From Candidatus Nanohaloarchaea archaeon (GTDB lineage Archaea; Nanohalarchaeota; Nanosalinia; Nanosalinales; Nanosalinaceae), in assembly GCA_014297435.1 (NCBI GenBank), contig JACOQA010000005.1, positions 1 to 62,909 of the forward strand: a stretch of DNA of 62,909 bases. Reading direction: 5' to 3'. Below are positions 31,503-49,904 of the stretch, piece by piece; positions within the stretch are counted from its first letter, which is position 1; every line of letters begins with the position of its first letter. The notes beneath the pieces are model-generated. The model searched no databases. It had not been told where the DNA came from and saw only the letters and a program-made list of their open reading frames with translations. A program made the translations under genes and the position numbers.

Positions 31503-32396
31503 TCAACGGGTTCCGATCTCCAGCTCAGAACTATTTGTGTAAGGTCTTCTAACATAAAGTCCTAGGCTGCCGGAAAGCCTGTCATCAAATCCTTTCGTAT
31601 CGAAAGGCGAATCATAAGTAACTCTCACGAGAGGCACATTCGGTACACTGAAAGCGAAGTTGGTTTCAACTTGGTCCATAAAGGTTCTCTGGTTGATTTC
31701 AGAACCTTCATCCTCGATCTCCGAATAACTCTCCGTGTTTGATACGAGGAAACTGCCTCTTGTCTGTACAGCCCTAAGAGTGTCAGGGCTACCTTCAACG
31801 TATTCCATTGAACTGAGTTCGCCGTAGCCTATAATTCCAAGCCCCGACTCTGTGGAAATGTAAGGATTAGAAAGTTCTAAGGTGTTATATTTTCCGCCTG
31901 ATGTCTGTTCTCCGTCGACGTAGACTGTTTCTGCATCAGTACTGACCTCTAGGGATATATTGTCTACAGTTTCTTTTTCCTCGCAAACCTGATATTTGAA
32001 ATGCCCTGGTTCGGCTACATGCGAGTCGGTTTTAGAGTGAAGTGAGAATATAGGGGTTTCACATGTTTTGTTAACCGAGGTCTCGAAACCGTCAACACAT
32101 ACATCCCATCGGTACTCGCCGAAAGTGGAGGCGTGAGAATCGTTTCTTTGGAACAATGAGATAACTGAGCTCTCTCCTGTTCTACAGCTATCTCGAATCT
32201 TTGCAGTTGAGACCTCTTCTCCGCAGACCTGATATTTAAAGTGTCCAGGTTCTGCAATGTTTCCGCCCTTTTTGTCCTTCAATGAGAAAAGGTTGACTTC
32301 TTGCGAATCACAGCTCTTTTCAATTGAAAAGGTTGGGGCTGCGGTTGTAAAACCTGCGAGCAGCAGCATAAACAGAGCCAGGGTTTCGAATTTCAC
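31503..32396 (-). CDS. Secreted cysteine-repeat surface protein
   Basis: 297 residues with a signal peptide (LALFMLLLAGFTTAAP). The first 140 residues contain three related modules, each starting at a Cys, with a F/I-S-L strand and ending in E-P-G-H-F-K-Y-Q-V-C or EYRWDVC; two carry the exact AEPGHFKYQVC. The rest is a beta-rich acidic domain without cysteines. Paired cysteines fit disulfide formation outside the cell. It is divergent from the first surface cassette. Confidence 0.7.
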   Translation of the reverse strand: MKFETLALFMLLLAGFTTAAPTFSIEKSCDSQEVNLFSLKDKKGGNIAEPGHFKYQVCGEEVSTAKIRDSCRTGESSVISLFQRNDSHASTFGEYRWDVCVDGFETSVNKTCETPIFSLHSKTDSHVAEPGHFKYQVCEEKETVDNISLEVSTDAETVYVDGEQTSGGKYNTLELSNPYISTESGLGIIGYGELSSMEYVEGSPDTLRAVQTRGSFLVSNTESYSEIEDEGSEINQRTFMDQVETNFAFSVPNVPLVRVTYDSPFDTKGFDDRLSGSLGLYVRRPYTNSSELEIGTR

Positions 32397-32477: not shown

Positions 32478-33011
32478 ATGAAAGCAAAAATTTTGTTGGC
32501 TTTTGTCATGGTTGTTTCGGTCGTAACGATAGCCGCGGCCCCTCAACCTGAGCAAAGCCATAATCTATCGGAGATAAAGCCTATTGACGTCGATTTCAAC
32601 ATGTCAAGAATGGACATCTTCAACGTTACGGAGCTAGATCTTTACTCCGGTCTAACTTTTACAGGCAACTGGATAAACACTCCTGGCGGACAGAACCTTA
32701 TAGGATGGGACCTCGCTAACACACAGCTAGAGTTGAAGAACGGCAACCTCAGCCTTGAAGGGAACCGCTTGGTAAACGTAGGTGGTATATCTGGATGTAC
32801 GGGTTCACAACTGGTTAAGGGGGACGGTGGATGTAAGTCTGCAGATTTATCCGTTTCTGATAACTGGGTTAATGAGACAGGGGATAACATGACAGGAAAC
32901 CTCAACATGAACGGGAACCAAATCAAAAACTCGACTATGGACAAGAGAGACTGTGCTTCAAACCCTCCAAGCAGAGTAGGTCAGATGGTCTACTGTACTA
33001 ATGCAGACTGA
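32478..33011 (+). CDS. Sec-exported NVTEL-module protein, copy 1 (cassette A)
   Basis: 177 residues from the ATG at 32478; a GTG at 32460 lies in the promoter. Signal peptide ends at about AIAAAP. The conserved module follows: H-x-L-S-x-I-x-P-I-D-V-D-F-N-M-S, DIFNVTELDLYSGLTF, then N-L-I-G-W-D. The C-terminal part has SDNWVNETGDNMTGNLNMNG, a motif shape common in phage tail fibres, and a final Cys-containing loop. First gene of cassette A; the next gene follows after 6 bp. Confidence 0.75.
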   Translation: MKAKILLAFVMVVSVVTIAAAPQPEQSHNLSEIKPIDVDFNMSRMDIFNVTELDLYSGLTFTGNWINTPGGQNLIGWDLANTQLELKNGNLSLEGNRLVNVGGISGCTGSQLVKGDGGCKSADLSVSDNWVNETGDNMTGNLNMNGNQIKNSTMDKRDCASNPPSRVGQMVYCTNAD

Positions 33012-33017
33012 TATGCT

Positions 33018-33230
33018 GTGAAAGATGAAAAATATAACCGTAGAAAATTTTTGAAGTTTCTAGGTCAGGGAACAGCTTTGCTCGGTCTAGCTTTATCGCC
33101 TTTAAGTCCGTTAAGTAGCATTCTAGATAATATTGGAGAGGGATCAGATCTAAACAATGTAGAGAAAGTTAGGCAAGATCCGCAAAATCCTTCCAAAGGC
33201 GACTTGTGGTTTAGAGAGGATTTAGCCTAA
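33018..33230 (+). CDS. Tat-signal miniprotein (cassette A)
   Basis: 70 residues from a GTG at 33018. The twin-arginine motif NRRKFLKFLGQG is followed by a hydrophobic stretch, so it should be exported folded by Tat. The mature part is only about 35 residues and ends NPSKGDLWFREDLA, like the G-D-L-W-[FV] ends of viral tail proteins. Its stop touches the ATG of the next gene (TAA-ATG). Counterpart of the 226-residue Tat protein of cassette B. Confidence 0.7.
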   Translation: MKDEKYNRRKFLKFLGQGTALLGLALSPLSPLSSILDNIGEGSDLNNVEKVRQDPQNPSKGDLWFREDLA

Positions 33231-33962
33231 ATGAGCGAGTTAAATAGGCTTCTAATGCCTATGGTGGACGGAAAGCCGAAATACAAGGAAAGAGTCAGAA
33301 TTCTGTCGGTTAACCATAAAGTTGGAGAGGATTCTGTGGTTGTTGAGGTATCAGAGGATGATGAAAATCTGGAATGGCTTCTTCAAGCAAGAGATGTATA
33401 CGAACTTGATTATGACGGTTTTATAACTAATTCAGGTCCTGATGGACCTCCGGGGGACGGAAGAACGCCTTATAAGCCGAATGAGAAGGATAGAGATGCT
33501 ATGACCCAACGACCAGAAGGATACACTATTGATCAGATAGAGAATGTAGATCTTGAGCTAAGAAAGGTAAGGGAGGAGGATATGGCGCAGGATGATCTTT
33601 ACAGGCATTATGAAGCGTTAGAAAAGGACTGGGATCTATCTAATCCGAAAGTAATAATATTTAATACTGTGGTTAAAGGAGATAAAGTGGTTTTAGGTAA
33701 GATACGCTACATTTATTTCCCTAATGAGAACTTAATGACTTGTGACTTTATTTCTATTTCTAAACCTTATACAAAGACAAAAGTATTCCATAAAACTTAT
33801 GATTTTGGGCTTAAAAACCATCCAGGATATGAGGTGGAAGAGGAGCTTGTTTGCAGCTACTGCGATAAATCTAGGATTATTGATAGACTCAAGATGGATT
33901 ACGAAAAAATCCTGACTTTAGAAAATAAACAAAATATCTGTTGGTTCAGAAGACTGAGGTGA
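33231..33962 (+). CDS. Signal-less cassette protein, 243-residue family (cassette A)
   Basis: 243 residues, no signal peptide or membrane helix. Clearly paralogous to 40518-41249: both share R-V-x-x-x-S-[IV]-N, VEVSEDxxNLxWxLQA, DVYExDYxGF, DGPP, RPxGYTID and the near-identical ENLMTCDxISxSKPYT. No known fold recognised. Conserved presence in both cassettes suggests a dedicated chaperone, assembly or modification factor, or a structural subunit carried out with a partner. Confidence 0.7.
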   Translation: MSELNRLLMPMVDGKPKYKERVRILSVNHKVGEDSVVVEVSEDDENLEWLLQARDVYELDYDGFITNSGPDGPPGDGRTPYKPNEKDRDAMTQRPEGYTIDQIENVDLELRKVREEDMAQDDLYRHYEALEKDWDLSNPKVIIFNTVVKGDKVVLGKIRYIYFPNENLMTCDFISISKPYTKTKVFHKTYDFGLKNHPGYEVEEELVCSYCDKSRIIDRLKMDYEKILTLENKQNICWFRRLR

Positions 33963-33971
33963 TACCTTCTT

Positions 33972-36900
33972 ATGCCGGATGAGTCCTACAGTTATGACAC
34001 CAGTACAACAGTTCCTAATGATGCAGGAAAGGTAATAATAGAGGCATATGGCGCTCAAGGAGAATCCTCCAGCAGTGCTAATACTGATGGCGCTACGGCT
34101 CCTAAGACGGCAAGCGGTGGAAATGGAGGCATAATTAAAGTGGAGTATCCTGTAAACGGAGGAGAGACATTATACATTAGGACGGAGGGAGGAGGAAATG
34201 CTGGCAGCACATATGTATCATCAAGTAAATATGTTGATAACCCGGGTTATGTCTATGGTGCAGGCGGAGGTAACGCAGCAGATGTAAGACTTGGTGGAAG
34301 TTCATTATACGACAGGATTGTTGTGGCTGGAGGTGGGGGTGGCGGAGGTTCAGCTTCTACAGGCGCTGATACTTCGGGTTATACATCAGGTGGTGGGGCT
34401 GGAGGAGCCTTACAAGGCGAAGATGCTAATGGCTCATCACCTTCTGGAGGGGGTGGTGGAACTCAGAACTCTGGAGGTTCAGCAGGGAAAGCAGGATATC
34501 ATATTGAGTTAGATGGTAAAAGCGATGGAAGTTCGGGTTCACTAGGCAGTGGAGCTAGTGGATCAAGTCAGGGGACTGATGCCTTTGGTGGTGGGGGTGG
34601 CGGAGGTTACTATGGCGGAGGTTCAGGAGCCGCTCAATACTACTTCAATACAGGTAGTAGTACATACTGGGGGAGAGGAGGAGGTGGTGGATCAAATTAC
34701 TGCGATAGTTCAGGCAATATAATACAGAACCAGCGTGGAGGATCTACAGGATCCGCATCTGTATCTCTAACATGGATTACTCCGCCTAACTCTCCATCCA
34801 GTCTTTCAACTAGTTTCAATAATGGCTCAGTTTCTTTATCGTGGTCTTCGCCTGGAGATTGGGGAGGTGAGACAGGAAGCTATAAGATTTATAGAGGTAA
34901 TTCAAGTGGAAACTACTCTCAGATAGGTACTACTTCGTCCACCTCCTTTACAGATAACAATCCCCTAAATGGTACAAATTACTACGTTGTTAGAGCGACG
35001 AATTCAGTCGGTGACTCTTCATACTCGAATGAGGCTACAGCCACAACGGTGACAGCGCCTTCATCGCCTTCAGGTATTTCTCTTACTGTTAATTCTAATG
35101 ATCAGATAGCTGCTTCGTGGTCTTCCCCTTCAGATTGGGGAGGCGATCAGGGCAATTACCGTGTCCAGATTAACAGGGATGGTAATGGTTGGGTTAACCC
35201 GTCTGGAGGGAATACAACTCCCGGTTCTGGTACTACTTCTGCTAGTTATGGTCCAAATTCGGATAACTCATACAATTCTCAAGTAGGTATCGATTCCAGT
35301 TTCCGTTTCAGAGTCAGAGCTGAAAACTCGGCTGGGAGCTCTGGCTGGACCTACTCTGAGACGGTTTATACAACTCCGACAGCTCCGAAAAAACCTTCTG
35401 TTAACAGGTCTGATGCGAATACTGTTGAAATTTCTTGGACGTCGAACACGGATTTAGGAACGGATGGAAGGACGGATATCGAGTACCGTGAGGATACAGG
35501 TTCAGGGTATAATGGATGGTCAAATGTTGAAACAATCTCTGCGTCAGCTAAAGGAACTCGAAGGACTAGGACCTATAGCGTGTCTTCTGATGGTTTCATG
35601 CAGGAAGACGCCCGTTACCAGTTCAGGCTGGCTCACTACCTTTACCAGGATACGGATGGCGACGGCAATAACACACTATGGGAATCGCCTTACGTCTATG
35701 CTGACTACGGCAATCAGGATAACCTTTATTTTGAGGATGACTTTGAATCAGGAGATCTTTCGAACTGGGATTCTAACAACTTGGCAGGTGATACCGGTGT
35801 AAAGTCAGGTTCCGGACCAGCTGATTTAACGATTAGCGGAGCTGATTCAGGAAGTAACTACTTCTACGGTGAAGGTGTTAATTCGAATGAAGGTACATGG
35901 ATTCAGAAAAACCTTGGCGATCTCTCCTCCGGGTCAGATGTTTTGGTTAGATGTGCTTTCGCCACAGCTTCCCTGGACAGCAACACCGAGGACTTCGGCG
36001 TAAAGTGGTATGATGGCTCTTCATGGAGAAACCTACGACATGTAGGACAGGAATACAATAGACAGGGTTGGTTCGAGTTCCATGCTCTTGTACCTCCATC
36101 ATATCTGTCAAGTGACAGTAGAATCAGGGTAGGAACAACCACACAAGGCGGAATGTATGGAGGCGATTACTATGCCGTTGATCGAGTAATTGTTTCAGAT
36201 GTGCTTCATGAGTATACGAAACCTGCTGCGCCCTCGAGCGTAACGGTTGTAGGTGAGAATGCTTCTGGAACCGTCGATGGCAAACAAACTCCCACAATGA
36301 CTATTGATTGGACAGCAAATCAGTCACATCCTATGACCTTTGACAAGGAGTGGCGGAAGTCAAGCTCATCCTCATGGGATAATACCGAGTGGGGTGGCGG
36401 CAAACCATACAAGATACCAGAGTCGAATAATCCAAAGCTTCTGCATGGGGAAGAGTACGAGATAAGAGTAGGAGGTTTTTACCGACAGTACAGACATGGA
36501 TCTAGAAATAATAAGTGGTGGTCAAACTGGTCCTCTACTATTACTGAGGTAACACCTCTACCAGCTCCATCAGGGGTTTCTGCCTCTGTGGTTGCAAACG
36601 ATCAGATAGACTTGTCCTGGAACGATAACATTAACAACGGAAACTATCACGTCCAGATAAACAGGGATGGTACAGGTTATGTAGATCCGTCAGGAGGAAC
36701 AACTTTGGTCAGTCAAAACACGTCCAGCTCAAGCTATACTCCATCTAGTTCAGGAGGAAGTTCGAAGGATTACGATGCCAACGTTGGTATAGACTCCACA
36801 TTCAGCTTCAGAGTGAGATCGGAGACAGAGCACACTAATTCGTCTTGGAACTCTTCGTCAAAAGTTTACACTCGACCAGTTCCGCCCGGTAATGTAACGG

Positions 36901-38180
36901 TAAATAGACCTGACGCTGTCACAGTTGAGATCTCCTGGGATAATGAGACTAATTACTACGAAGGCGTGGATCTATACTACCGAAAAGACGCCGGATCAGG
37001 ATATGGCAACTGGAAAAAGGATACAAACTATCTAAGCCCGGTTTCATCCATAACTGTCGACACAAGCAAATCCTGGTTCGAGAAGAACGCACGTTACCAG
37101 TTCCGTATCTGGTACTATCAGTCCTATAACGATGGTTCAGGTAATTACTGGCATTCAGACTTTTCATATGCAGATTATGGTAATGAAAATAATGTCTACT
37201 TTGAGGATGATTTCTCCTCTGGAGATGACTCTGCATGGACCTCTTCAACTTACGGTGTAGGGGGGGTGGTTAGCAGCTTAAGCACTGACTTCTCGAACGG
37301 AGAGACAAGTCCTCAGAGCGGCGGTTATGCAGTAGAGTTCGGGGATTCAGGCAATCTACAGAAAGACTTGGGAGATATGTCTGGGGAATCTGACGTCCAT
37401 GTCCGTGTCAGAGTTCAAACCGCCTCAAACGATGTTGATAGTGAAAGAGGAGATGTCTGGTGGTATGATGGATCAACCTGGCAGAACTTGAAGCAGTTTA
37501 TGTGGGAGCTTGACGGTCAGGGCTGGATGGAATACCACATACCTGTTCCGGATTCCTATCTCTCAACCGACAACAAGATTAGAATCGGTCGAGATGAAGG
37601 AGGAGGAGCTGACTGGGTAGCATTTGACAAGATCATAGTATCGGACATTCTCCACGAATATACTATGCCTAGTGCCCCAACTAACCTAGTTTCTAAATCG
37701 ACCGGTATAGACTCCTTAGAACTTTCATGGACGGATAATGCTAACTTCGAGGACAGGTACGAAATATTTTACAGGCAGCAGGGTGCTTCAACTTGGACGA
37801 AAGATCATAATGAACCGACAAACTCCGAAAGCGCTGTTATAAATGGGCTTCCGATAAACACACGTTTTGAGCTTAGGACTCGTGAGGTTGTGGAGCAGTT
37901 TAGAAACGGTTCAGTCAATAGTTGGTGGTACCACGACAACTTACATCCAAACATCTCAACCGCTTTAGCAGAAACCCTGGTCAATACTCCATCCGCTAAT
38001 GTGAAGGTTCCAGTATTCGATTTGCAGGATGTTCAGAGAGATTTCATGAGAACGAAGACTCCTAACGGGATCGGAGCATTGAACTTTGCTCCGCTGAATG
38101 ACGCAGACCTAGATCAGATAAGAGTATACACTGAAAGTTATGGAACTCTCGGTCTGAAAAGTGAGACTGAGAACAACTAG
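33972..38180 (+). CDS. Giant glycine-rich/FN3/jelly-roll surface protein (cassette A)
   Basis: 1402 residues. Residues 1-270 are a glycine-rich domain of the ALK-like type (VAGGGGGGGSASTG, GGGGGGYYGGGSGAA, GRGGGGGSNYC). Then two tandem blocks, each of fibronectin-III modules plus a jelly-roll domain beginning YFEDDF-S-G-D and ending ILHEYT-P-x-A-P. A last FN3 follows and a tail with FMRTKTPNGIGALNFAPLND. No N-terminal signal peptide is visible, odd for such a domain set. Domain content implies glycan or cell binding outside the cell. Confidence 0.8.
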   Translation: MPDESYSYDTSTTVPNDAGKVIIEAYGAQGESSSSANTDGATAPKTASGGNGGIIKVEYPVNGGETLYIRTEGGGNAGSTYVSSSKYVDNPGYVYGAGGGNAADVRLGGSSLYDRIVVAGGGGGGGSASTGADTSGYTSGGGAGGALQGEDANGSSPSGGGGGTQNSGGSAGKAGYHIELDGKSDGSSGSLGSGASGSSQGTDAFGGGGGGGYYGGGSGAAQYYFNTGSSTYWGRGGGGGSNYCDSSGNIIQNQRGGSTGSASVSLTWITPPNSPSSLSTSFNNGSVSLSWSSPGDWGGETGSYKIYRGNSSGNYSQIGTTSSTSFTDNNPLNGTNYYVVRATNSVGDSSYSNEATATTVTAPSSPSGISLTVNSNDQIAASWSSPSDWGGDQGNYRVQINRDGNGWVNPSGGNTTPGSGTTSASYGPNSDNSYNSQVGIDSSFRFRVRAENSAGSSGWTYSETVYTTPTAPKKPSVNRSDANTVEISWTSNTDLGTDGRTDIEYREDTGSGYNGWSNVETISASAKGTRRTRTYSVSSDGFMQEDARYQFRLAHYLYQDTDGDGNNTLWESPYVYADYGNQDNLYFEDDFESGDLSNWDSNNLAGDTGVKSGSGPADLTISGADSGSNYFYGEGVNSNEGTWIQKNLGDLSSGSDVLVRCAFATASLDSNTEDFGVKWYDGSSWRNLRHVGQEYNRQGWFEFHALVPPSYLSSDSRIRVGTTTQGGMYGGDYYAVDRVIVSDVLHEYTKPAAPSSVTVVGENASGTVDGKQTPTMTIDWTANQSHPMTFDKEWRKSSSSSWDNTEWGGGKPYKIPESNNPKLLHGEEYEIRVGGFYRQYRHGSRNNKWWSNWSSTITEVTPLPAPSGVSASVVANDQIDLSWNDNINNGNYHVQINRDGTGYVDPSGGTTLVSQNTSSSSYTPSSSGGSSKDYDANVGIDSTFSFRVRSETEHTNSSWNSSSKVYTRPVPPGNVTVNRPDAVTVEISWDNETNYYEGVDLYYRKDAGSGYGNWKKDTNYLSPVSSITVDTSKSWFEKNARYQFRIWYYQSYNDGSGNYWHSDFSYADYGNENNVYFEDDFSSGDDSAWTSSTYGVGGVVSSLSTDFSNGETSPQSGGYAVEFGDSGNLQKDLGDMSGESDVHVRVRVQTASNDVDSERGDVWWYDGSTWQNLKQFMWELDGQGWMEYHIPVPDSYLSTDNKIRIGRDEGGGADWVAFDKIIVSDILHEYTMPSAPTNLVSKSTGIDSLELSWTDNANFEDRYEIFYRQQGASTWTKDHNEPTNSESAVINGLPINTRFELRTREVVEQFRNGSVNSWWYHDNLHPNISTALAETLVNTPSANVKVPVFDLQDVQRDFMRTKTPNGIGALNFAPLNDADLDQIRVYTESYGTLGLKSETENN

Positions 38181-38221
38181 TTCTCGAATAGTTTTTAATC
38201 AGTGATGAGAACCTAGTTATT

Positions 38222-38569
38222 ATGTCTGAAAAAATCTTTTTGGTTTTAATTTTGCTGTTGTCTGCGGCAGCTGTAACAGCCCCGGCTTCAGAGCCTAGAC
38301 ATCCTCTTTCTCAGGTTTATCCGGTAGACGCCGATCTTAATATGTCGCATCAGGATATCTTCAACGTTACAGAGCTGGATCTTTATTCTGGCTTGGTTTT
38401 CTCCGGAAATAAAATCCAAACTGCTGGTAACGCGAACCTAATTCTATGGAATAACGTGAAAAATAGAATTGATTTGAGTCAAAACGTAAACACCGAGGGA
38501 AACAATATAAATCTGAGCGGAGGCAGCTTGACATCCCAAAAAGAGATATGTGTTGGCAACCAGTGCTAG
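38222..38569 (+). CDS. Sec-exported NVTEL-module protein, copy 2 (cassette B)
   Basis: 115 residues. Signal peptide (LVLILLLSAAAVTAPAS), then the module EPRHPLSQVYPVDADLNMSH, DIFNVTELDLYSGLVFSG, A-N-L-I-L-W. It lacks the tail-fibre-like extension and ends with a Cys-x4-Cys loop. An inverted repeat (CTAGTTCTC with GAGAACCTAG, one bulge) lies at 38178-38215, just upstream, possibly ending cassette A transcription. Confidence 0.75.
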   Translation: MSEKIFLVLILLLSAAAVTAPASEPRHPLSQVYPVDADLNMSHQDIFNVTELDLYSGLVFSGNKIQTAGNANLILWNNVKNRIDLSQNVNTEGNNINLSGGSLTSQKEICVGNQC

Positions 38570-39250
38570 GTGAACGAAATGGAAGATATTGAAGATATCG
38601 TTGATGATGAAGAAACTGCCCGTAAACTCGAAGAAATTATTGAGATGAAAGTAGAGGATAAGCTAAATTCAACTAGAGATGATACTACTCGAGAGGATAT
38701 TTCAGAGAGCGGTTTTTCTCGAAGACAGTTCTTGAAGAAACTGAGTTACGGTGTTTTAGGCATAAGCGCTCTTTCAGTCCCTGTCTCCGGATTTGATGTA
38801 AAATCCTCTGACGGCTTAGAAGTATTTACGAACGCAAAAAAACATTTTGACGTAAATCCGGGAGGTCCTGTCAGTATCAAAAGCGCAAATCTAAACATGA
38901 ACCAGGGAGAGATCAATAGTGCTTCAAACATAAGTTTCGCAAATAATGAGAAAGGCGACTATGATGAGGACGGTTTACTTTACTGGGACAAATCGGCAGG
39001 TCTTTACATAAAGAGCAGTAACTCTTCCGGTTCAGAAACAGGAGGCAGACTCCAGTGGAGCGGAGCAAACGTTACCGCAGGAAACCAGATAAATGTTAGC
39101 TACAGTGGCGAAGATCATCCAACTATTTCAGTTAACGATGGTGCGGGAAGCGGTTTAGATGCAGACAAGATAAAGAACAATCATATTTATGTCCAGTCAA
39201 GTCAACCATCAAGTCCCACTACAAATGACATATGGGTAGATACGAGTTAG
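38570..39250 (+). CDS. Tat-exported surface protein (cassette B)
   Basis: 226 residues from a GTG adjacent to the preceding stop. An acidic coiled-coil N-region of about 48 residues precedes the twin-arginine motif FSRRQFLKKLSYG, an unusually deep position. A hydrophobic segment follows and an acidic beta-rich part with N-x-x-x-G-x-I-x-x-A tail-fibre-like repeats. The end, PSSPTTNDIWVDTS, parallels the end of the cassette A Tat protein. Cytoplasmic N-tail may bind a partner. Confidence 0.7.
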   Translation: MNEMEDIEDIVDDEETARKLEEIIEMKVEDKLNSTRDDTTREDISESGFSRRQFLKKLSYGVLGISALSVPVSGFDVKSSDGLEVFTNAKKHFDVNPGGPVSIKSANLNMNQGEINSASNISFANNEKGDYDEDGLLYWDKSAGLYIKSSNSSGSETGGRLQWSGANVTAGNQINVSYSGEDHPTISVNDGAGSGLDADKIKNNHIYVQSSQPSSPTTNDIWVDTS

Positions 39251-39261
39251 AGGCGGTTTAG

Positions 39262-40224
39262 TTGCCCGAGATAACTTTTCAGACCAATAGCTCCTGGACG
39301 GTTCCATCCGGAATTAACGAAGTGAGAATTGAGTGTTGGGGGGAGGAAGGAGGAGACGGAAGAGGTAACGGCGGTAATGGAGGCTATATAAGGTCTGTGC
39401 ATTCTGTAAACCCGGGAGAGACATTATATATCCGTTTTGAAGGTGGAAGAAGCCCTAGCACCTATTCGGGCGGTAACTCTAAAGACAAAACTGATTTCAC
39501 CGTTAACCCGCCCTCAAGCGGTGATGCTGCAGACGTAAGAAGAGGGGGAACCTCTCTCGACGACAGAATTGCCGTAGCTGGCGGAGGAGGTGCGGGGGGA
39601 GCAGCCTCTAGCGGTCCTGATGAGGTAAATATTTCGGGAGGGGATGGAGGAGCTTTGCAAGGTGAATCTAATGGAAGAGTCAGCGTAGGGGAGGTATATC
39701 CCGAGCAGTGGTGGTTTCAGGCAGGTCAAGGAGGCACTCAGACTTCGGGCGGTGCTGGAGGTATAGGCACAAACGGCAATTATAGAGATGATTCCTGGAC
39801 TGAAGGTTTTAATGAGCCTGATTGGACAGGAAATGATGGTTCTAAAGGTTCTGGAGGTCTTGGGGCAAGAAACAAGCACACTGATACACGTGATGAGTAT
39901 GGTGAAGGTGTTATTGGTGGAGCTGGTGGTGGAGGTTACTATGGCGGAGGTGGCGGTTCAGCAGCCTCAGCCAGAGATCAGGATGATTTTAAATATGTGG
40001 AACTTACCGGTGGTGGCGGAGGCTCTAATTATTCTTCAGGTGATATCCAGCAAAATTCGCGTGGTTCTAACTATGGATCGCCAAAGGTCAAGATAAAATA
40101 TGCTTCGGGAGTAAAGGTTTACACTGGGGGCGGATGGGAGTCTAAACCGATTAAGTACTGGAATGGGAGCTCTTGGAGTAGTGCGCAAGTTAAGTATTGG
40201 AACGGCAGTAGTTGGAAATCTTAG
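39262..40224 (+). CDS. Glycine-rich domain protein (cassette B)
   Basis: 320 residues from a TTG at 39262. It matches the N-terminal 270 residues of the 1402-residue protein: W-x-V-P-x-G-[IN], VAGGGGAGGAASSG, GGALQGE, GGGGYYGGGGGSAAS, GGGGSNYSSG. It ends in two short repeats of K-Y-W-N-G-S-S-W. No signal peptide is visible, as in its homologue. Its 3' end overlaps a minus-strand gene by 4 bp. Confidence 0.75.
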   Translation: MPEITFQTNSSWTVPSGINEVRIECWGEEGGDGRGNGGNGGYIRSVHSVNPGETLYIRFEGGRSPSTYSGGNSKDKTDFTVNPPSSGDAADVRRGGTSLDDRIAVAGGGGAGGAASSGPDEVNISGGDGGALQGESNGRVSVGEVYPEQWWFQAGQGGTQTSGGAGGIGTNGNYRDDSWTEGFNEPDWTGNDGSKGSGGLGARNKHTDTRDEYGEGVIGGAGGGGYYGGGGGSAASARDQDDFKYVELTGGGGGSNYSSGDIQQNSRGSNYGSPKVKIKYASGVKVYTGGGWESKPIKYWNGSSWSSAQVKYWNGSSWKS

Positions 40225-40460
40225 TCTTTTTTCTTCTCTAACATGTTCGCCAACTCCTCACTGTTCTCTACCGGAAAATCGTCTTCATCGCATCTTTCGA
40301 GAAGTCGCATGACCCTCAAATCTTCTCCATCTTCGAGATCTAAAGTTGTTTCAAGTCCATCCGGTAGGTAGGGCACCAAATCCAGTGGTTTTTCGACAGG
40401 ATAATCTGCCATACCGAACATCTCAACAATACTTAATCTGAATTTGTTTCCCTCTTCCAT
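40221..40460 (-). CDS. Small DUF5789-like protein
   Basis: 79 residues from the ATG at 40460 (GGTG ribosome site 6 bp upstream; an in-frame GTG at 40469 overlaps it). The pattern FGMADYPVEKPLDLVPYLPD, acidic centre and a final FPVENSEELANML resembles the haloarchaeal DUF5789 family. It is the only minus-strand gene inside the cassette region and may be a local regulator. Family call is tentative. Confidence 0.5.
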   Translation of the reverse strand: MEEGNKFRLSIVEMFGMADYPVEKPLDLVPYLPDGLETTLDLEDGEDLRVMRLLERCDEDDFPVENSEELANMLEKKKD

Positions 40461-40517
40461 CTTTAACACCTAGGTTAAAATAGTCTTAGTTCTACTATTT
40501 TAATAAGTGTAAGATTA

Positions 40518-41249
40518 ATGGGTAGAGATTTGATAAGGCTTCTTCTGCCTAAGGTCGAGTCGGGTTTAAAGTACGGTGAGAGGGTCAACGTCGTCTCCAT
40601 TAACAGGGAATACTCTGACTCGGCTTTGGTGGAAGTTTCGGAAGATGAACCTAATTTGGACTGGATCCTTCAAGCAAAGGATGTCTATGAGATGGATTAT
40701 AAGGGTTTCGTGAAGAATATCGGGACTGACGGACCACCTAATGATAGAGTCGTCTATGAACCTTCTGAAAGAGAGAAGAGGCACCGGACTAGCATGGAGA
40801 GACCAAAAGGCTACACCATAGATGGTACGGAAGAGATGGATCTAAAGGTCACTAGAGTTGAGAATAATGCTGTAACCGAAGATCAGCTTCCTTCATATTA
40901 TGGGATAATTAGCGATGATTATGATCTTTCTAAAGGAAGACGTTTGAAATTCATATGTCATGTAAAGAATGATAAGGTAGTTTTAGGTAAGACCAGATAT
41001 TTCTACTTTCCAAAAGAAAATTTAATGACTTGTGATTACATTTCAGTTTCTAAACCGTATACAAGAAACCGTGTCTTCCATGAAACTTATCAATTTGGGA
41101 GAAGAGACCACCCAGGATTTGAGGTGGACGAAGAACTCGTATGCAGCTTTTCTGATCCGTCCAAGATAATGAATCGGTTGAAGATGAATTACAGGAAAAT
41201 GAGAGATATTAAGCAAGAAAAAAACAGATGTTGGTACAAAAGAGTGTAG
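40518..41249 (+). CDS. Signal-less cassette protein, 243-residue family (cassette B)
   Basis: 243 residues, the same length as its paralogue at 33231-33962, with the same blocks (LVEVSEDEPNLDWILQAKDV, NLMTCDYISVSKPYTRNRVF, VDEELVCSF). The paralogues differ mostly on the surface and in the middle third. No domain recognised. The separate promoter region and reversed order relative to the glycine-rich gene show the cassette was rearranged after duplication. Confidence 0.7.
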   Translation: MGRDLIRLLLPKVESGLKYGERVNVVSINREYSDSALVEVSEDEPNLDWILQAKDVYEMDYKGFVKNIGTDGPPNDRVVYEPSEREKRHRTSMERPKGYTIDGTEEMDLKVTRVENNAVTEDQLPSYYGIISDDYDLSKGRRLKFICHVKNDKVVLGKTRYFYFPKENLMTCDYISVSKPYTRNRVFHETYQFGRRDHPGFEVDEELVCSFSDPSKIMNRLKMNYRKMRDIKQEKNRCWYKRV

Positions 41250-46122: not shown

Positions 46123-46638
46123 ATGTTCAAGAAATTTACCTATATTTTAGTATTTGTGTTTTTGGCTGCGGTCGTTTCAGCTCCAGCTTCCGGACCGACT
46201 CATCCTCTATCTCAGATATCTCCTATAGATGTAGACCTAGATATGGAGGAACAAGATCTGTTCAATATCTCTGAACTAAAGATAAGTCATGGACCTGTGT
46301 TTGATCAAAATGCTATTAGGGGGAGCGGCAACGCCCCCACATTCGTCCGTTTCAAGAGCTCGGGAGAAATTGAGTTTCCGGGAGGAAGGCTTGATCTAAG
46401 AGGTAATGGGCTCGAAAACATTAGCAGCATTGGAAGTTGCGGAAACTCTGAGTTAATTATGGGGGATGGTTCATGTAACCCGGTTTCGAACTTTCTTACC
46501 TCAGATAACTGGGTTGATGAAAACGGCGATACAATGACAGGACCTCTCGACATGGGAGGCAACAGCATAGATAAAGCAGGATCGGTGGAGGTCCAGAACA
46601 GTCTTCAGGTACCGGTGGGCGAGGATGCATACCAATAA
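46123..46638 (+). CDS. Sec-exported NVTEL-module protein, copy 3
   Basis: 171 residues. Signal peptide (YILVFVFLAAVVSAPAS), module GPTHPLSQISPIDVDLDMEE with DLFNISELKI, then SDNWVDENGDTMTGPLDMGG (the tail-fibre-like block also in copy 1) and a Cys pair C-x-x-S-E-x8-C. The 3' end overlaps the next start by 14 bp. It lies 135 bp after the carbamoyltransferase and is preceded by a 20-bp palindrome. Confidence 0.75.
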   Translation: MFKKFTYILVFVFLAAVVSAPASGPTHPLSQISPIDVDLDMEEQDLFNISELKISHGPVFDQNAIRGSGNAPTFVRFKSSGEIEFPGGRLDLRGNGLENISSIGSCGNSELIMGDGSCNPVSNFLTSDNWVDENGDTMTGPLDMGGNSIDKAGSVEVQNSLQVPVGEDAYQ

Positions 46639-48839: not shown

Positions 48840-49904
48840 ATGATTCGACAAATATTCATGATATTTGTTCTTGCTTTATTTGCTTTTCAAGTTTCAGCAC
48901 CGACCAATGAACCAAGACACCCTCTTTCGCAAGTTTCACCTGTTGATGTAGATTTGAATATGTCAGAGCAGGATATCTTTAACGTAACAGAAGTTAAACT
49001 TGCTGGAGGACTAGGATTCTCGGGTTCATGGATAGAGACTCCTGGTGGAGGCAATCTCTTAGGGTGGGATGCAGTTAATATGCAACTGGATCTTAAATCT
49101 GGAGACATAGACCTTAATGGCAATACAATTTTAGACAGTTCTGGTAACATTGGTTTAGGCTCCAGTATTGATCTCAGTGGTAATAGTCTTCTTGACAGCT
49201 CTGATAATAAGCTTAATTTAGAGGACAACGTAAAGCTTGAGAATCAGAATTATATTCAAATCGGTAATGATGATGGAAGCTATTACTTAGGTGGCGGAAG
49301 CACACCAGATGCAGAAACCACGGGTGTGCATTTGGAAGCTGGTAGTAACCCTAGTAGCGGAAACCCGATATTCATCGTTGAAAGCAGTGGAGGAAGTGAG
49401 AGGCTCCGGGTAGAACACTCAGGCACAACGTCAACGTCCAACAGCTTCAGAGCTGATGGGGGCATAAGCTCTGGAGGAACACTAAACATGAACAATAATC
49501 GGATAGATAACGTTGGCACGCCGTCAGACAGCGATGATGCGGCTACTAAAGGGTATGTAGATAGTAAATCAAGTGGGTCTCTTCAAATTACAGGGACCCA
49601 TTACAGTAGTTCTTCGGCGTGTAGTACTAGTTCTGATGGAACATCAGCTTCTACTTCAACAACAGTAAGTTGTCAGGATTCGGAGGCATTTGTGATTGCT
49701 CAGGGCGCTCATAAAAGCGTGGGCACCTCAACCGCTAACTATATAGATTGCCCCCTTTATGAGGCTAATGCGAAAAAGAGCAATATTGATCTAGACTGGG
49801 AGAATCGTCCTTCTAAGACGTCTTATTCTGCTTCTGCTTCGGGATCGGGAGATAACGTAGATATAGAGATAGTGGCTAAAGTTGTTTGTGGAAAATATAG
49901 CTGA
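48840..49904 (+). CDS. Sec-exported NVTEL-module protein, copy 4, tail-fibre-like
   Basis: 354 residues. Signal peptide (IFMIFVLALFAFQVSAP), module EPRHPLSQVSPVDVDLNMSE with DIFNVTEVKLAGGLGFSG. Then come repeated beta-roll units (DLNGNTILDSSGNIGLGS, DLSGNSLLDSSDN) and the block GTLNMNNNRIDNVGTPSDSD followed by DAATKGYVDS, a very typical phage tail-fibre element. A C-terminal Cys-containing domain closes it. It lies between the pilins and the pilus motor, on the opposite strand, so it may be a fibre tip or adhesin. Confidence 0.8.
   Translation: MIRQIFMIFVLALFAFQVSAPTNEPRHPLSQVSPVDVDLNMSEQDIFNVTEVKLAGGLGFSGSWIETPGGGNLLGWDAVNMQLDLKSGDIDLNGNTILDSSGNIGLGSSIDLSGNSLLDSSDNKLNLEDNVKLENQNYIQIGNDDGSYYLGGGSTPDAETTGVHLEAGSNPSSGNPIFIVESSGGSERLRVEHSGTTSTSNSFRADGGISSGGTLNMNNNRIDNVGTPSDSDDAATKGYVDSKSSGSLQITGTHYSSSSACSTSSDGTSASTSTTVSCQDSEAFVIAQGAHKSVGTSTANYIDCPLYEANAKKSNIDLDWENRPSKTSYSASASGSGDNVDIEIVAKVVCGKYS

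What the first reader, a model, noticed from the sequence alone, without database searches (positions are those of the whole stretch)
32478..41249. Two related multigene surface cassettes with a repeated protein-type set
Seen: cassette A (32478-38180) and B (38222-41249) each encode a Sec-exported NVTEL protein, a Tat-signal protein, a signal-less 243-residue protein and a glycine-rich protein, packed with gaps of 0-12 bp. The glycine-rich partner is 1402 residues with FN3/jelly-roll modules in A and 320 residues in B. Gene order differs (243-family before the glycine-rich gene in A, after it in B). I know no described system with this composition. Inference: a two-route (Sec and Tat) exported surface assembly, perhaps for cell-cell contact in a host-dependent archaeon.
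Basis: partly seen in the sequence, partly recalled or inferred. Interest (0 to 1): 0.85.

Follow-up and report, generated by a model that had tools for sequence, protein, structure and literature searches.

The report
Virus-like adhesins riding Tat carriers
A tiny archaeon that lives on other archaea carries gene sets in which a small exported "carrier" protein is paired with a large signal-less protein related to tail proteins of viruses that infect those same hosts, which suggests that it displays virus-type grappling hooks on its own surface by letting them hitch-hike out of the cell.

Summary
The eight genes exist at the stated places. Three points need correcting. The 243-residue gene of cassette B is not in its operon: it lies 293 bp away, past an opposite-strand MTH865-family gene. 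The 243 family is an orphan, found twice in this genome and nowhere else searched. The glycine-rich proteins have no export signal.

The core unit is [Sec fibre-like protein] - [Tat-signal carrier] - [signal-less adhesin]. It recurs in Nanohaloarchaeota. Cassette A has a syntenic counterpart without the 243 gene in G010; B's carrier plus glycine-rich pair recurs in G010 and in Ca. Nanohalococcus occultus. tatA/tatC lie beside carrier genes, and TatC and carriers co-occur (p = 0.0005).

The 1402-aa partner is homologous to tail-region proteins of Halorubrum viruses (E to 1e-100). Its C-terminal "TPSG" domain and the carrier's C-terminal P..P..G.lWfR.DL motif form a pair also seen in tailed viruses. 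In 8 of 8 viral loci with that motif at a gene end, the next start overlaps the stop; most next proteins carry TPSG.

Best reading: viral-type receptor-binding proteins dock on small Tat carriers and are exported with them as hitch-hikers. Docking and export are inferred. The 243 protein's role is unknown.

The parts
31503..32396 (-). divergent secreted 297-aa protein; its paralogues sit divergently beside the third cassette at L057
   Evidence: E 1.5e-36 to the L057 305-aa protein; N-terminal hydropathy 2.1
32478..33011 (+). Cassette A Sec-exported NVTEL protein (177 aa), fibre-like repeats, ends VGQMVYCTNAD
   Evidence: 44% to B's; C-terminus 66%/38 aa to G010 Sec538; N-terminal hydropathy 2.96
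33018..33230 (+). Cassette A Tat carrier (70 aa), ends DPQNPSKGDLWFREDLA
   Evidence: TIGR01409 22.4 bits over cut-off 16.7; G010 orthologue E 4e-13; motif pattern found at carrier ends in three genomes
33231..33962 (+). 243-aa orphan protein, copy A, no signal
   Evidence: 53% to copy B; no relative in other genomes searched
33972..38180 (+). Cassette A signal-less partner (1402 aa): glycine-rich start, FN3 and jelly-roll-like modules, C-terminal TPSG domain (about 37965-38177)
   Evidence: Homologous to CGphi46 HALG_00046 and Humcor1 HrrHm1_100 (E 7e-100, 1e-93); G010 orthologue E 1.5e-156; FN3; TPSG profile
38222..38569 (+). Cassette B Sec-exported NVTEL protein (115 aa)
38570..39250 (+). 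Cassette B Tat carrier (226 aa) with charged n-region, ends VQSSQPSSPTTNDIWVDTS
   Evidence: R-R invariant among 16 aligned carriers; relatives in 5 of 28 genomes, the window's own included
39262..40224 (+). Cassette B signal-less glycine-rich partner (320 aa), ends with two YWNGSSW units
   Evidence: Pfam PF12810 6.8e-7; Humcor1 N-terminus 37%/209 aa E 2e-13; counterparts in G010 and G006
40221..40469 (-). MTH865-family gene on the opposite strand; separates B from its 243 copy (not part of the cassette)
   Evidence: PF07747 3.2e-15
40518..41249 (+). 243-aa orphan protein, copy B, outside the operon

Best explanation
Each cassette builds one surface adhesin. A Sec-exported NVTEL protein with fibre-like repeats is encoded first. 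Next comes a small Tat carrier; in cassette A it is little more than a twin-arginine signal and a short stalk ending in one half of a tailed-virus fibre motif. Then comes a large signal-less protein related to tail-region (probably receptor-binding or tail-tip) proteins of haloarchaeal viruses. The partner is made by coupled translation, folds in the cytoplasm and docks on the carrier's end: through its TPSG domain in cassette A, and probably through its terminal YWNGSSW units in B. TatA/TatC then export the folded pair, the partner as hitch-hiker. Outside, it stays at the cell surface and binds the haloarchaeal host. Shown: gene set, synteny, lack of partner signals, tatA/tatC linkage, homology to viral tail-region proteins, and association of the motif with TPSG in viruses. 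Inferred: coupling, docking, co-export, surface display, host binding. The 243 protein is an optional, lineage-specific addition of unknown role.
For: Synteny: A's Sec, Tat and partner recur in order in G010 L080; B's carrier and glycine-rich gene recur in G010 (stop and start overlap by 1 nt) and G006 (11 nt). Fused form: in G004 one polypeptide carries the Tat signal, the motif, a beta-propeller and YWDG..W (three copies); a propeller is split from its carrier in G001. Signals: every tabulated partner has N-terminal hydropathy 0.7 or less; cassette Sec proteins 2.2 or more. In G010 both signal-less LamG proteins lie downstream of a Tat carrier, while most other LamG proteins with a readable N-terminus have a hydrophobic or pilin-like start. 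Tat machinery: tatA and/or tatC found beside or near carriers in G000, G002, G004, G006, G010 and tatC beside a fusion's C-terminus in G013; TatC and carriers co-occur, p = 4.8e-4, and 4/4 versus 0/8 in near-complete genomes. Viral homology. Docking pair: HGTV-1 ORF29 ends SDPSASAGEMWYRSDLD and ORF33 starts with TPSG; Bacillus phage Mater tail spike ends ADPADAEVGQMWFRSDL and the overlapping next gene is TPSG; 8 of 8 viral loci have overlapping starts, and 7 of the 9 loci examined have TPSG in the next protein, six of them at E 2.6e-4 or better; among 4012 control ORFs TPSG hits fall only in such partners, in lone TPSG proteins of HGTV-1 and G012, or in pieces of them.
Against: No physical interaction or export was tested. 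Both structure predictions failed to reach usable confidence (pLDDT 30 and 44). B's Tat signal scores below the TIGR01409 cut-off. G001 has carriers but no TatC found (77% complete); G005 has TatC but no clear carrier. The 243 gene sits between carrier and partner in A, which weakens direct carrier-partner coupling there. G002's carrier is followed by tatA, not by a partner, and G012's TPSG protein has no carrier next to it. In HGTV-1 the motif-ended gene and the TPSG gene are not neighbours. For class B the docking evidence is only pattern matching in three pairs plus the fused form.
Confidence: 0.55

Rival explanations
1. One reading: a multi-protein surface assembly in which Sec and Tat proteins are exported separately and the glycine-rich proteins leave by some unrecognised route or by cell lysis, with the 243 protein as a structural member.
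For: Sec and Tat signals are real and Sec-Tat adjacency recurs in eight cassettes.
Against: The partner's place after the carrier and the shared motif/TPSG pairing are unexplained; the 243 family is not conserved and B's copy is outside the operon.
Confidence: 0.2
2. The carrier and partner are made as one polypeptide by stop-codon read-through or frameshifting, so the partner inherits the Tat signal covalently.
For: In cassette A the carrier, the 243 gene and the 1402-aa gene share one reading frame, separated only by TAA and TGA; G004 has a true fusion.
Against: Frames differ in B, G010b, G006 and G010a, and the partners have start codons of their own at the junction.
Confidence: 0.08
3. The large partners are acquired viral tail genes that work inside a virus-like particle or are remnants, and are not displayed by the cell.
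For: Strong homology to halovirus tail-region proteins.
Against: Tat and Sec signals precede them; the flanking genes tested are cellular (deoxyhypusine synthase, AMP-binding enzyme, carbamoyltransferase, pilus genes); cassette A is retained in another genus with 50% identity over 581 residues and intact frames.
Confidence: 0.12

Closest known systems
Tat hitch-hiker export (Rodrigue et al. 1999, in the reference list of PMC6708511; principle stated in the abstract of PMC10924467)
   Same: One subunit has a twin-arginine signal and its partner has none; here the genes are adjacent.
   Different: The classic case is a periplasmic enzyme complex; here the cargo is an adhesin-like protein of viral type and the carrier can be reduced to a signal plus a short docking end. 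Co-export is not shown.
Tail-region proteins of haloarchaeal tailed viruses (CGphi46 HALG_00046, Humcor1 HrrHm1_100, HGTV-1 ORF29/ORF33)
   Same: A's partner is homologous over most of its length, including the order glycine-rich start then FN3/jelly-roll-like modules; the motif end and TPSG domain are shared.
   Different: Here they lie among cellular genes, behind a Tat-signal carrier. That the viral proteins bind receptors is inferred from their place after the tape-measure gene.
Tail spike plus TPSG gene pair of Bacillus phage Mater and relatives in IMG/VR
   Same: Upstream gene ends in the same motif; partner gene follows at once and carries TPSG.
   Different: The upstream protein is a long spike or fibre, not an exported carrier.
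Nanohaloarchaeal SPEARE and LamG surface proteins (PMC6642349, PMC10266531)
   Same: Surface adhesion proteins of host-dependent nanohaloarchaea.
   Different: SPEARE proteins are giant membrane-anchored proteins with a cytoplasmic domain; most LamG proteins have their own signal or membrane segment, the partners here have none.

Membership tests
Tat substrate | N-terminal twin-arginine signal | tested here: met
   A: TIGR01409 22.4 bits over 16.7. B: 13.1 bits, below cut-off, but SRRQFLKK aligns with 15 other carriers, R-R invariant
Tat substrate | Tat translocase present in the genome | tested here: met
   TatA PF02416 1.2e-12 and TatC PF00902 1.2e-56 at L057
Tat hitch-hiker complex | Partner lacks a signal of its own | tested here: met
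   Hydropathy of partners 0.7 or less; in-frame stops just upstream of the starts at the junctions shown for A and B
Tat hitch-hiker complex | Carrier and partner form a complex before export | not testable with these tools
   Complex prediction not available; indirect support only from fused forms and motif/TPSG association
Tat hitch-hiker complex | Partner export depends on the carrier signal | not testable with these tools
   needs an experiment
Tailed-virus tail-tip protein | Sequence homology to viral tail-region proteins | tested here: met
   41% over 543 aa, E 7e-100
Tailed-virus tail-tip protein | Lies in a virus tail gene cluster | tested here: not met
   Flanking genes tested are cellular; hence filed as related to, not as, a viral tail protein
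SPEARE proteins | Giant size with C-terminal membrane segment and cytoplasmic domain | tested here: not met
   1402 and 320 aa, no membrane segment (19-residue hydropathy maxima 0.95 and 0.33)

The most novel reading that the evidence does not exclude
A host-dependent archaeon has taken the detachable tip of tailed-virus fibres, including its docking joint, fitted the joint with a Tat signal and uses it as an exchangeable surface adhesin to recognise the same haloarchaea that the viruses infect; the Tat pathway of nanohaloarchaea serves mainly this purpose.
Probability: 0.4. Interest if true: 0.9.

Novelty: new variant of a known kind. Interest (0 to 1): 0.76.

Why it matters
How DPANN archaea find and hold their hosts is an open question. 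This gives a specific, testable candidate: viral-type tail proteins on the symbiont's surface, exported folded with a minimal Tat carrier. It would add adhesins to the cargo of Tat hitch-hiking, give a role to a Tat system that was called likely inactive in a cultivated nanohaloarchaeon, and expose a fibre-end/TPSG docking pair that recurs in phages and has no significant Pfam, PHROG or PDB match.

Tried and rejected
243 family: no match in Pfam, NCBIfam, IMG/VR or 84,980 species genomes, and nothing significant in phages, plasmids or PDB (weak PHROG hits of 0.1 and 0.36); structure prediction unusable (pLDDT 30). Jelly-roll-like module of the 1402-aa protein: model confidence 44, fold search without significant hit; not used. 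Close viral relatives of the 1402-aa and glycine-rich proteins in IMG/VR by peptide patterns: none. Simple A-to-B duplication rejected because the carriers belong to different types. Programmed frameshift or read-through considered, rejected as a general explanation because frames differ. The fourth whole-phylum motif hit (G027) is a chance match, not an ORF end.
Full report
CHECK OF THE OBSERVATION. Cassette A is tight: Sec to Tat 6 bp, Tat to 243 0 bp (TAA followed by ATG), 243 to 1402 9 bp. In cassette B, Sec to Tat is 0 bp and Tat to glycine-rich 11 bp, but the glycine-rich gene and the 243 gene are 293 bp apart. The gap holds an opposite-strand gene of the MTH865 family (PF07747, 3.2e-15). 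The two 243 proteins are 53% identical, the Sec proteins 44% and the glycine-rich parts 49% in the alignment. The Tat proteins align only in the signal and the end.

THE ORGANISM. The window belongs to a 1.0-Mb archaeal genome (G000) whose phylum has 28 held genomes. G006, in the same family, has exactly the length published for Ca. Nanohalococcus occultus SVXNc (948,351 bp). The window is therefore from Nanohaloarchaeota (inference from kinship).

WHAT RECURS AND WHAT DOES NOT. The 243 family was found only in this genome: 0 of 59 relatives, 0 of 27 other phylum genomes, no relative in the pattern scans of IMG/VR and of 84,980 species genomes, and nothing significant in phages or plasmids. 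The pattern scans are limited in sensitivity because the family has only two members. The NVTEL family occurs in 12 of 28 genomes. Relatives of the B carrier occur in 5, own genome included, and a model of 16 carrier N-termini finds strong carriers in 7. A third Sec-Tat cassette lies on another contig of the same genome (L057), beside two divergent paralogues of the window's 297-aa protein (E 1.5e-36 and 8e-22) and a few kb from tatA and tatC.

SYNTENY. In G010 (L080) the order Sec (538 aa), Tat (75 aa), signal-less partner (755 aa) matches cassette A without a 243 gene. Sec C-termini are 66% identical over 38 residues, carriers E 4e-13, partners 50% over 581 residues with E 1.5e-156. B's carrier and glycine-rich gene recur in G010 (L059 13792-15866) and G006 (L062 3991-2862, minus strand); these carriers end VQSSQPSNPSNGDIWVDTS and VQSSKPSDPDVNDIWFNI, and the partners end with paired YWDGS.W units. 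In G004 similar halves flank a beta-propeller in one polypeptide, three times. In G001 a carrier and a propeller are separate genes 2 bp apart. Fused and split versions of one arrangement are the classic sign of interacting parts.

EXPORT SIGNALS. Over the first 80 residues, the best 15-residue hydropathy mean is 2.2-3.1 for the Sec proteins of the cassettes. It is about 1.35-1.75 for the Tat carriers (G001's 249-aa carrier has its hydrophobic segment at residue 77, beyond the stretch tested) and at most 0.7 for the partners; the 243 proteins score 0.65 and 0.52. This is a simple test, not a trained predictor. Both signal-less LamG proteins of G010 lie downstream of a Tat carrier (one directly, one behind a TPSG gene), while LamG proteins elsewhere in the phylum mostly begin with a hydrophobic or pilin-like segment where the N-terminus could be read.

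TAT MACHINERY. TatC is present in 8 of 28 genomes. Strong carriers are in 6 of those 8 and in 1 of the other 20 (Fisher p = 4.8e-4; near-complete genomes 4/4 against 0/8, p = 0.002; relatedness not corrected). A seventh TatC genome, G013, has the C-terminus of a propeller fusion at a contig start beside tatC. tatA and tatC adjoin or lie a few kb from carrier genes in G000, G002, G004, G006 and G010. The SVXNc paper found only TatC and judged the system likely inactive (PMC10266531); the sequence shows a tatA (PF02416, 2.4e-12), tatC and two carriers together.

VIRAL RELATIVES. The 1402-aa partner matches HALG_00046 of Halorubrum virus CGphi46 (41% over 543 aa, E 7e-100) and HrrHm1_100 of Humcor1 (E 1e-93, plus the glycine-rich start at 1e-9). 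The Humcor1 gene lies two genes after the tape-measure gene. The G010 755-aa partner matches the same proteins. B's glycine-rich protein matches the Humcor1 N-terminus (37% over 209 aa, 2e-13; glycine-rich sequence, so composition may add to the score). That these viral proteins bind receptors is inferred from their place in the tail operon. Flanking genes tested in the window are cellular.

THE DOCKING PAIR. The C-terminal domain of the 1402-aa and 755-aa partners (here called TPSG) is the N-terminus of HGTV-1 ORF33 (46-50% identity). HGTV-1 ORF29 ends SDPSASAGEMWYRSDLD, the same end as the carriers of A (DPQNPSKGDLWFREDLA), G010 (DPQNPENHKIWFRKDLS) and G002 (DPANPEVAQMWYRTDLD). A third G010 carrier ends GDPSNPEEGEIWYDSSA and is followed by a gene that begins with TPSG. 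In Bacillus phage Mater a tail spike ends ADPADAEVGQMWFRSDL and the overlapping next gene is TPSG (HMM E 8.5e-10). A scan of IMG/VR for G[QE][IM]W[FY]R[ST]DL followed by TAA or TGA, not selected for what follows, gave 8 loci. In all 8 the next start codon overlaps the stop; about 6 are independent, and chance is about 1 in 16 each for the TRATG form. The TPSG profile detects the domain in the next protein of L119 (2e-12), L122, L125, L121 (9e-8; L121 came from the narrower scan), L124, L118 (2-3e-4) and weakly L126 (0.006); L123 lacks it and L120 appears to be a broken copy of L119. Among 4012 ORFs of all loci held, TPSG matches fall only in such partners, in lone TPSG proteins (HGTV-1, G012) or in pieces of them. 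The DNA pattern for W[FY]R.DL.stop occurs four times in 28 whole genomes, three of them at carrier ends and one by chance. TPSG has no significant Pfam, PHROG or PDB match.

MECHANISM. Shown: arrangement, synteny, signals, machinery, homology, association of motif and TPSG. Inferred: the partner docks on the carrier in the cytoplasm and is exported folded by Tat as a hitch-hiker, then displayed to bind the haloarchaeal host. Tat exports folded proteins and can carry signal-less partners (established; abstracts of PMC6708511 and PMC10924467), so a folded adhesin complex is a fitting cargo. Cassette A's carrier has only about 35 residues beyond its signal, too little for a surface structure of its own, which supports an adaptor role. 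The Sec NVTEL protein may be the stalk. For class B the docking motif is inferred from three pairs and the G004 fusions. The 243 protein remains unexplained; its two copies and its position between carrier and partner in A suggest a late local addition.

LIMITS.

Noticed in passing
window 46123-46638 and 48840-49904: Two more NVTEL-domain Sec proteins (profile E 9e-37 and 2e-38), next to pilin-like genes and type IV pilus assembly genes (T2SSF, T2SSE).
   Followed up: partly
L062 1848-3991 (G006, Ca. Nanohalococcus occultus): tatA, tatC, a glycine-rich gene and a Tat carrier are adjacent, although the published genome paper reports a lone TatC and a likely inactive Tat system.
   Followed up: yes
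L118-L126, L107: Phage fibre or spike genes ending in G[QE][IM]W[FY]R[ST]DL overlap the next gene in every case found; a general fibre-end/TPSG arrangement in phages that deserves its own survey.
   Followed up: partly
window 33018-38180: Carrier, 243 and 1402-aa genes share one reading frame, separated only by TAA and TGA; probably chance (1 in 9) but it allows a read-through test.
   Followed up: partly
L061 15617-15928, L071 2002-2286, L102 415-729: A small protein of about 100 aa follows Tat carriers in G004, G001 and G013; where tested it matches phage family phrog_3834 (G004 3.4e-12, G001 1.5e-8).
   Followed up: no
L059 7069-8714, L060 8702-9266, L061 17039-18393: Small gene pairs that look like toxin-antitoxin modules flank several cassettes (judged by eye).
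   Followed up: no
L113 125-970 (G012): A signal-less TPSG protein stands alone next to cellular-looking genes; the related genome G002 has a motif-ended carrier by tatA/tatC without an adjacent partner, so the pair may act in trans in this genus.
   Followed up: partly
window 31503-32396 and L057 5334-7345: A family of secreted proteins of about 300 aa lies divergently upstream of cassettes and near pilin-like genes in several genomes.
   Followed up: no
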